From the NCBI GenBank assembly GCA_003569165.1, contig BGOI01000002.1:1-64000 (forward strand): 64,000 bases of DNA. Reading direction: 5' to 3'. Under the pieces are notes generated by a model. The model saw only the letters and a list, made by a program, of their open reading frames with translations. It searched no databases and was not told where the DNA came from. The position numbers and the translations under genes are program-made. This document shows positions 7,121 through 44,630 of the stretch, piece after piece. The stretch is from Opitutia bacterium (GTDB lineage Bacteria > Verrucomicrobiota > Verrucomicrobiia > Opitutales > UBA953). How positions within the stretch are numbered: the stretch's first letter is position 1; every line of letters starts with the position of its first letter.

Positions 7121-7332
7121 CAGGAGGTAGGGGCGCGACGGTGTCGCGACCGAGGGGATGAGGGTCGAGGGCGGACGCGTCGCCGACGCGTCCCTACCTG
7201 CGCGGCGGAGCTGCGAGGGGTTGGCGGTTAGCGGTTGGCGGTTGGCGGTTGGGAGCGCAAAGAGGCGGCTAGGGCAGCACGCGGTGCTGCCCCTACCTTA
7301 GAGACAGCGGATGCGATGTCATCGCATCCCTA
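7121..7332. repeat. CCCTACC-flanked variable hairpin array plus GCGGTTGGCGGTT short tandem repeats
   Basis: Hairpins 7134-7148, 7173-7193, 7272-7292 and 7309-7329. Confidence 0.85.
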
Positions 7333-7335
7333 CCT

Positions 7336-8993: not shown

Positions 8994-9056
8994 TGTCGTG
9001 ACGCGGTCCCGACCCTACCCGAAAGAATGTCATCCATGCAGTCATCGATTCAGCCC
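8994..9056. repeat. intergenic repeat TGTCGTGACGCGGTCCCGACCCTACCC and ATTCAGCCCTC modules
   Basis: Identical 27-mer at 31207-31233. Confidence 0.8.
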
Positions 9057-10681: not shown

Positions 10682-10847
10682 GGGGTGAAGTTATGAAAGT
10701 GAAACGCCGAGGTGGAGGAGAAGTTGAAGAATGGAGGCAGGAAAATTTTCAGGAAAATACGGGGCTTAATGGAGGGTTAAGGTTGCGCGGTGCAAGGCGC
10801 CGCGCGGGGATCTGCTGGCACGGGGAACGGCTGCGAAGCAAGGTAGG

Positions 10848-10938
10848 GCCGACCATCCTTGGTCGGCCGCGGCCAAGCAGGGATGCTTGGCCCTACCCGA
10901 GGCACATGAGGACAGTACGTGGTGCTGTCCCTACCTTA
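10848..10938. repeat. CCCTACC-flanked variable hairpin array
   Basis: Hairpins 10848-10867, 10871-10892 and 10910-10930; CCCTACCTTA includes the stop codon of the neighbouring gene. Confidence 0.85.
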
Positions 10939-20827: not shown

Positions 20828-21180
20828 GAGGGCCCGAGGACCGGAGGGCCGGAAGGAAGAAAGGCAGTGCAAAGGTGCAACTGCGGCGGAGCCACGAGGG
20901 GGTATCCCTCGAGGGCTAGAGGGCACGAGGACCCGAGGACCGGAGGACCGGAACGGCGCACCACTAGTTGACCCGTTGATCAGTGGGCCAGTTGGCCGGC
21001 GAGACAAACTAGCTGGCCGGTTGACAAGTTGACAGGTGGGCAAGGGAGCAAATACCCCGCTCAAAGGGGAACCGGAGACCGGGATGTTTGCTGCGGGCAT
21101 TGGGTAGGGCGGGCAAGGTGAACCCGTTTCGGGTGGCAGGTGGCAGCCCCGGGTGGCGGGTGGCGGGTGCGCCGCAGGGC
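20828..21180. repeat. mosaic of degenerate dispersed repeats (GAGGACCGGAGGACCGGA, TTGATCAGTGGGCCAG, AAAGGGGAACCGGAGACCGG, GGTGGCGGGTGGCGGGTG)
   Basis: Same words recur at 31003-31140 and 44405-44500. Confidence 0.75.
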
Positions 21181-21184
21181 GGCC

Positions 21185-21492
21185 GGAGGTAGGGGCACGA
21201 TTTATCGTGCACTCCTCATGCGGAGGGCGCGGCGAAGCCACGCCCCTACCTTAGTTCGCCCTGCGGCGAACGGTAGGGCTGACCATCCTTGGTCGGCCGA
21301 GCGGTCGAGCAGGGATGCTCGACCCTACCTAGATACAGCGGACGGCTCGGAGAGCCGTCCCTACCATGGGAGACAGACGGATGCGATGCCATCGCATCCC
21401 TACCCGGGCGGCTGACCAAGGGTGGTCAGCCCTACCGAGATACAGAGGACAGCACGTGGTGCTGTCCCTACCTAGAGACAGCGGACGCGTCG
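21185..21492. repeat. long CCCTACC-flanked variable hairpin array (about 9 hairpins)
   Basis: Hairpins 21195-21210, 21278-21297, 21303-21324, 21340-21360, 21379-21399, 21410-21431, 21447-21467 and others. Confidence 0.9.
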
Positions 21493-21493
21493 C

Positions 21494-31002: not shown

Positions 31003-31300
31003 ACACGATTCGAGGACACGAGGGCCGGTGGGCACGAGGACTCGTAGCACAAATGAGAGGCACGGAGGCTCAGAGGCTCGGTTGACCAGAGGGATTCCTC
31101 GCTCAAGGGGAGACCGGAGACCGGATGATTGGCTGGGGGATATGTCCTCAGCTAACATTCCAGTTTCCAGTCTCCCTTGGTTTTGCGTGAAGGCAATTGC
31201 AGGCACTGTCGTGACGCGGTCCCGACCCTACCCATTGCATCTCATCTATTCAGCCCTCGATGCAGTCCTCTATGCTGTCATCGACTCAGTCATCTACCCT
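31003..31300. repeat. mosaic of dispersed intergenic repeats
   Basis: 27-mer shared with 8994-9020; AGACCGGAGACCGGATGATTGGCTGGGG shared with 44471-44498. Confidence 0.75.
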
Positions 31301-44405: not shown

Positions 44406-44509
44406 GGCCGCGACTAGTTGATCAGTTGACCAGTGGGCCGGTTGACAAGGATGCCCAAGCATCAAAGGGAAACCGGAGACCGGATGATTGGCTGGGGTAT
44501 CTTGGGTAG

Positions 44510-44630
44510 GGAGGCGATTGCCATCGCCTCCGTTCGAGACCGCAGCCGCAAAGTCGTCGGGTCTTAGCTAAGTCGAATAGACAAGTGAATCATCTGGCGA
44601 ACGGACGTGATAGCAATCACGTCCCTACCC
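44510..44630. repeat. CCCTACC-flanked variable hairpins
   Basis: Hairpins 44510-44531 (GGAGGCGAT-TGCC-ATCGCCTCC) and 44603-44624 (GGACGTGAT-AGCA-ATCACGTCC-CTACCC). Confidence 0.85.

What the first reader, a model, noticed from the sequence alone, without database searches (positions are those of the whole stretch)
21185..21492. Arrays of hairpins with variable stems in a constant CCCTACC / AGAGACAG frame
Seen directly: a run of short units of consensus AGAGACAGnGGA-[stem]-[3-4 nt loop]-[stem']-TCCCTACC. Stem sequence differs between units but stays self-complementary: GGACGGCTC-GGA-GAGCCGTCC (21340-21360), GGATGCGAT-GCC-ATCGCATCC (21379-21399), GGCTGACCA-AGGG-TGGTCAGCC (21410-21431), GGACAGCAC-GTG-GTGCTGTCC (21447-21467), GGTCGAGCA-GGGA-TGCTCGACC (21303-21324). 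Constant linkers with changing palindromes differ from ordinary REP/ERIC repeats, where the palindrome is the conserved part. Inference: selection or a copying mechanism preserves pairing, not sequence. I do not recognise this as a named element.
Basis: partly seen in the sequence, partly recalled or inferred. Interest (0 to 1): 0.82.

Follow-up and report, generated by a model that had tools for sequence, protein, structure and literature searches.

The report
Mixed cluster of REP mini-transposons
The changing hairpins in a constant frame are a pile-up of many families of a known kind of tiny mobile DNA (GTAG-tagged REP elements), each family matched to its own transposase gene in this lake-bacterium genus, so the find is a rich example of a known system rather than a new element.

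Summary
The hairpins are real and far beyond chance: in 464 kb of this genome GGTAGGG occurs 112 times and 68 are followed at once by a hairpin with at least 8 of 9 Watson-Crick pairs (shuffled about 0.1; nearly all permuted tails 0). The varying stems are not one shape-preserving element but many coexisting REP classes, each fixed in sequence and flanking its own transposase gene (RAYT/TnpA-REP). This genome holds four such RAYTs. Every stem word in the array, exactly or as a close subfamily variant, flanks a RAYT here or in a sister species. RAYT clades and stem classes agree perfectly (15 changes for 16 groups, the minimum; shuffled 38.6). RAYT-bearing genomes hold more REPs (median 102 v 27). 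The AGAGACAG 'linker' is one form of a CT-rich motif 5' of GTAG, matching the published C|T cleavage sites of RAYTs. What is unusual is the number of classes in one genus (at least 16) and dense head-to-tail arrays of unlike units. Known kind, new members; array assembly remains open.

The parts
21189..21212 (+). GTAG REP, class K partner: GGGCACGAT-TT-ATCGTGCAC (one mismatch)
   Evidence: cognate RAYT L132 in sister G059
21225..21249 (-). GTAG REP, class K: GGGCGTGGC-TTC-GCCGCGCCC; HH pair with 21189, 12-nt spacer
21273..21298 (+). GTAG REP, class I partner: GGCTGACCA-TCCT-TGGTCGGCC
   Evidence: same word flanks RAYT L140; own RAYT L122 has GGCCAACCA.tcct
21303..21328 (-). GTAG REP, class I subfamily: GGTCGAGCA-TCCC-TGCTCGACC; HH pair with 21273, 4-nt spacer
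   Evidence: own RAYT L122 flanked by GGCCGAGCA.tccc (one pair different)
21329..21339 (-). linker, REP strand GCTGTATCTAG: CT-rich 5' flank of the 21303 unit
21340..21364 (-). GTAG REP, class J: GGACGGCTC-TCC-GAGCCGTCC
   Evidence: cognate RAYTs L084, L139
21365..21378 (-). linker, REP strand GTCTGTCTCCCATG
21379..21403 (-). GTAG REP, class F: GGATGCGAT-GGC-ATCGCATCC
   Evidence: cognate RAYTs L076, L078, L079; 16 copies in genome
21404..21409 (-). short 6-nt linker GCCCGG without the CTGTCTC motif
21410..21435 (-). GTAG REP, class H: GGCTGACCA-CCCT-TGGTCAGCC
   Evidence: cognate RAYTs L083, L136-L138
21436..21446 (-). linker, REP strand TCTGTATCTCG
   Evidence: same linker next to a different unit in sister L106
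21447..21471 (-). GTAG REP, class A3: GGACAGCAC-CAC-GTGCTGTCC
   Evidence: cognate RAYT in this genome at G000:C3:76279-76704 (L121); 36 exact copies in genome
21483..21493 (-). truncated REP of class C (GGACGCGTC), abutting the stop codon of the GspF-like ORF
   Evidence: intact copies near the same site in L107, L108
4696..4751 (.). HH pair GGCTGACCA.tcct / GGTCGAGCA.tccc, followed by a decayed GGACAGCAC unit
7127..7333 (.). array of four units: GGGCGCGAC, GGACGCGTC, GGGCAGCAC, GGATGCGAT
10843..10934 (.). array of three units: GGCCGACCA, GGCCAAGCA, GGACAGCAC
44506..44628 (.). HH pair GGAGGCGAT / GGACGTGAT, 71-nt spacer
8995..9019 (-). mismatch-class REP GGTAGGGTCGGGAC-CGC-GTCACGAC
31208..31232 (-). 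mismatch-class REP GGTAGGGTCGGGAC-CGC-GTCACGAC

Best explanation
The array is a cluster of GTAG-tagged REP elements from at least six different REP classes. REPs are miniature non-autonomous elements moved as folded single strands by RAYT (TnpA-REP), an HUH single-tyrosine transposase. Each RAYT clade recognises its own stem and loop; the GTAG foot is shared by all and is thought to guide cleavage at C|T dinucleotides, which explains the constant frame (GGTAGGG plus a CT-rich 5' flank, CTGYMTCNRG) around changing palindromes. New classes arise as RAYT and stem change together; old copies stay behind. Insertions survive mainly just after stop codons and between convergent genes, so unlike classes pile up there. 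Shown here: hairpins, classes, RAYTs flanked by matching words, clade-word congruence, site turnover, location bias. Inferred: movement itself, C|T cleavage at the linker, stem recognition by each RAYT.
For: Hairpin after GGTAGGG 68/112 v about 0.1 shuffled. Four RAYT-like genes in the genome, each flanked on both sides by inverted GTAG REPs; they match NCBIfam REP_Tyr_transpos at 69-82 bits (cut-off 80), keep the HUH motif and a catalytic-type Tyr, and the best solved match of the RAYT profile is E. coli TnpA-REP 4er8, E = 7e-17. All array words, or close subfamily variants, flank RAYTs in the genus. RAYT tree: 16 word groups need 15 changes, the minimum (shuffled 38.6). REP counts with v without detected short RAYT 102 v 27, p = 1.3e-4; GGACAGCAC copies with v without its cognate RAYT 25 v 7, p = 2.6e-4. 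The same GspM-GspF gap carries different words in most sister species and none in others. CT at -5 of GTAG p = 7e-17; motif in 21/70 REPs v 3/577 other GGTAG sites. 37 of 69 REPs lie in convergent gaps (17% of intergenic bases), 1 in divergent gaps (22%). A prediction held: the RAYT clade without perfect REPs turned out to be flanked by the mismatch class.
Against: No movement was observed. Four genomes (G021, G057, G017, G020) have many REPs but no detected short RAYT, which needs RAYT loss, incomplete bins or missed genes. Three of the four own RAYTs fall below the NCBIfam cut-off (69-78 v 80 bits). The tight 11-14 nt head-to-tail spacing between unlike classes is not explained by independent insertion alone.
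Confidence: 0.95

Rival explanations
1. A single element whose stem is actively diversified while pairing is preserved (by templated repair, or selection for hairpin shape only).
For: Strong covariation across words; swapped units next to the same linker at one orthologous site.
Against: Words are few and repeated exactly within and between species, each tied to a RAYT clade. One class keeps a fixed mismatch.
Confidence: 0.03
2. The hairpins are kept as RNA elements: bidirectional terminators or 3'-end stabilisers after stop codons between convergent genes.
For: Bias to convergent gaps and to gene ends; hairpins often begin within a few bases of stop codons; RNA roles are proposed for other REPs (PMC3733652).
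Against: No T-run behind the hairpins and no terminator-like call on them. Presence and identity at the same site turn over between close species, including none at all. The bias also fits insertion tolerated only away from promoters and genes.
Confidence: 0.2
3. Integron-attC, CRISPR-like or structured non-coding RNA array.
For: Regular hairpins in a row.
Against: Repeats vary and the head-to-tail spacers are 6-14 nt; no Rfam match above the gathering score; RAYTs lie beside copies.
Confidence: 0.01

Closest known systems
GTAG REP superfamily, including Opitutus terrae GTAG families 17, 19 and 20 (PMC3733652)
   Same: Terminal GTAG, 6-9 bp stems, 2-4 nt loops, HH/TT/HT pairs, several families per genome, gene-end location
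   Different: [quoted passage not shown] here 15 of 41 neighbour pairs are HT, and at least 16 classes occur in one genus
Stenotrophomonas REP/RAYT classes SM1-SM13 (PMC3686654)
   Same: 8-9 perfectly paired bases directly next to the tetranucleotide; one stem class per RAYT; several classes in one genome; classes outlive their RAYT
   Different: Different phylum and stem words; here the stem always starts GG, so the frame reads GGTAGGG
TnpA-REP biochemistry, group 3 (S. maltophilia, Marinomonas; PMC8266576)
   Same: Short perfect palindromic REPs, GTAG needed for cleavage, cuts at C|T 5' or 3' of the hairpin; here a CT-rich motif sits 5' of GTAG
   Different: No biochemistry on these RAYTs; cleavage at the CTGTCTC flank is inferred
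REPINs of Pseudomonas fluorescens SBW25 (PMC3116915)
   Same: Inverted REP doublets as likely mobile unit, RAYT beside cognate doublets, clusters by insertion next to older copies
   Different: SBW25 doublets usually pair identical REPs; all 22 HH pairs in the 464-kb sample pair two different words

Membership tests
GTAG-tagged REP elements | Short stem-loop directly tagged at one end by GTAG | tested here: met
GTAG-tagged REP elements | Repeated at many places in the genome | tested here: met
   117 model hits at E<=0.001 in the genome; 36 exact copies of one class
GTAG-tagged REP elements | Extragenic location | tested here: met
   2 of 70 inside predicted genes (own simple gene caller)
GTAG-tagged REP elements | Association with RAYT genes flanked by cognate REPs | tested here: met
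GTAG-tagged REP elements | Mobilisation by the RAYT | not testable with these tools
   only copy-number and site-turnover support
RAYT / TnpA-REP | HUH motif and single catalytic Tyr followed by the conserved N-P-x-R stretch | tested here: met
   M-P-D-H-x-H and Y123..N127-P128..R130 invariant in 12 proteins
RAYT / TnpA-REP | Match to the curated family model | tested here: inconclusive
   81.5, 78.4, 71.2 and 69.5 bits against a cut-off of 80; no other family scores higher; PDB best hit 4er8
REPIN | Two REPs in inverted orientation with fixed spacing | tested here: met
   22 HH pairs with recurring spacers of 2-4, 12 and 65 nt; the HT units of the array are not REPINs
Intrinsic terminators | Hairpin followed by a T-run | tested here: not met

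The most novel reading that the evidence does not exclude
RAYTs of different classes, sharing GTAG and C|T sites, join each other's hairpins head to tail, so mixed arrays are built by cross-class strand transfer at the CTGYMTC flank rather than by independent chance insertions.
Probability: 0.2. Interest if true: 0.5.

Novelty: new member of a known kind. Interest (0 to 1): 0.3.

Why it matters
It gives a clean natural set of at least 16 RAYT clades, each with its own stem and loop, in one genus. Three sister clades (GGA-, GGG- and GGTCAGCAC) differ by one base pair of the stem plus loop bases, so which transposase residues read which DNA bases could be tested directly. It also warns that a 'constant frame, variable palindrome' pattern is what mixed REP classes look like.

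Tried and rejected
Rfam: two sub-threshold chance matches. Terminators: none on the hairpins. Pfam Y1_Tnp alone found only one of four own RAYTs; a protein search found the rest. Empty-site comparison to fix insertion boundaries: the GspM-GspF gap is too divergent between species. Neighbouring units never share a word (0 of 41), but by my estimate from the word frequencies only about two would be expected, so no claim is made. The order-wide model scan shows these GGTAGGG families are mostly confined to this genus (7 of 103 genomes with any hit), though the model is tuned to this genus.

Full report
WHAT IS THERE. The five hairpins are as described. On the minus strand each reads GTAG + 9-bp stem + 3-4 nt loop + stem'. 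The cluster has eight units (21189-21471) and a truncated ninth against the stop codon of a GspF-like ORF (21483-21493). The first four form two inverted pairs with GTAG outside (HH); the last four follow the second pair head to tail on the same strand. The linker read as AGAGACAG is variable; GGTAGGG is constant.

CHANCE. In 464 kb (window plus C1:1-400000), GGTAGGG occurs 112 times and 68 are followed directly by a hairpin of at least 8/9 Watson-Crick pairs; shuffled sequence gives about 0.1, and permuted tails give 0 except one site behind GGTTGGG. Across 14 words taken mainly from RAYT-flanking REPs, the covariation score is 0.821 v 0.202 +/- 0.041 in shuffles, and falls below 0.15 when the partner is slid by 1-3 columns.

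CLASSES AND THEIR TRANSPOSASES. The genome has four RAYT-like genes: C32:11545-11985, C3:71714-72151, C3:76279-76704 and C1:465327-465740. They are flanked by, respectively, GGTCAGCAC/GGTCGGCAC, GGGCAGCAC, GGACAGCAC, and GGCCGAGCA/GGCCAACCA. In sister species RAYTs are flanked by GGATGCGAT, GGACGCGTC, GGCTGACCA.ccct/GGTTGAGCG, GGCGGGCTC/GGACGGCTC, GGGCGTGGC/GGGCACGAT, GGGCGCCAC/GGGCGCGAC, GGCGGCCAT/GGACGTGAT and others. Every word of the window array is thus found beside a RAYT, exactly or (GGTCGAGCA) as a one-pair variant. On the RAYT tree the 16 word groups need 15 changes, the minimum, against 38.6 when shuffled; each multi-member word group is one well-supported clade (labels were assigned by me from flanking words, one group (K) lumps two related word pairs, and near-copies inflate the contrast). 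The two main members of the set first labelled 'none' proved to be flanked by a class with a fixed G.A mismatch, GGTAGGGTCGGGAC-CGC-GTCACGAC, also present twice in the window.

THE PROTEINS. They match NCBIfam REP_Tyr_transpos (69.5-81.5 bits, cut-off 80), carry an invariant M-P-D-H-x-H and a Tyr four residues before N-P-x-R, and the RAYT profile finds E. coli TnpA-REP 4er8 first among solved structures (E = 7e-17).

DYNAMICS. Genomes with a detected short RAYT have median 102 model hits, those without 27 (p = 1.3e-4); counts saturate near 138. GGACAGCAC copies: median 25 where its cognate RAYT was found, 7 elsewhere (p = 2.6e-4); the other two classes tested point the same way more weakly. 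These tests do not correct for shared ancestry. The orthologous GspM-GspF gap holds different words in most sister species, and only 35 bp without any REP in four of them. In an order-wide sample 7 of 103 genomes had any hit. Related genomes are freshwater Opitutae/Opitutales MAGs.

PLACE IN THE GENOME. 37 of 69 REPs lie in convergent gaps (17% of intergenic bases) and 1 in divergent gaps (22%); 55 of 69 have the GTAG side facing a gene end (simple hexamer gene caller).

THE LINKER. Upstream of GTAG a degenerate TGYMTY motif occurs in 21 of 70 REPs v 3 of 577 other GGTAG sites. CT is enriched at -5 (p = 7e-17), -6, -9 and -10, and not behind the hairpin. Published TnpA-REPs cut at C|T 5' or 3' of the hairpin with help of GTAG (PMC8266576). 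So AGAGACAG is best read as the reverse complement of a CT-rich cleavage or target flank. Head-to-tail neighbours sit mostly 11-14 nt apart. At the GspF site the same linker follows GGACAGCAC in this genome and in L106, but the next unit differs. Whether arrays grow by repeated insertion at such sites or by cross-class strand transfer is open.

KNOWN OR NEW. The layout equals Stenotrophomonas REP/RAYT classes (PMC3686654) and the GTAG superfamily, which already includes Verrucomicrobia (PMC3733652). Inverted doublets match REPINs (PMC3116915). New members of a known kind; the number of classes and the heterotypic head-to-tail arrays are the unusual points.

Noticed in passing
window 8995-9019 and 31208-31232; L064, L124: A REP class with a fixed G.A mismatch in the stem, flanking its own RAYT clade in two sister species.
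   Followed up: yes
window 20964-21100 and 44411-44505; sister loci L097, L099, L103, L108: A second interspersed intergenic repeat without the GTAG hairpin (actagttga..., ...ctcaaaggggaaccggagaccgg...), often beside REPs.
   Followed up: no
L048 and other C1 stretches: HH pairs of several words share a 65-nt spacer with conserved ends (gtgggcggacggagg ... gcgaac), as if one spacer type served several stem words.
   Followed up: partly
G021, G057, G017, G020: Many REPs but no short RAYT detected; candidates for RAYT loss or binning gaps.
   Followed up: no
L056, L121 (two genes) and sisters in the tree: Three sister RAYT clades whose cognate stems differ at stem pair 3 (A-T, G-C, T-A) plus loop bases: a ready set for mapping recognition residues.
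   Followed up: partly
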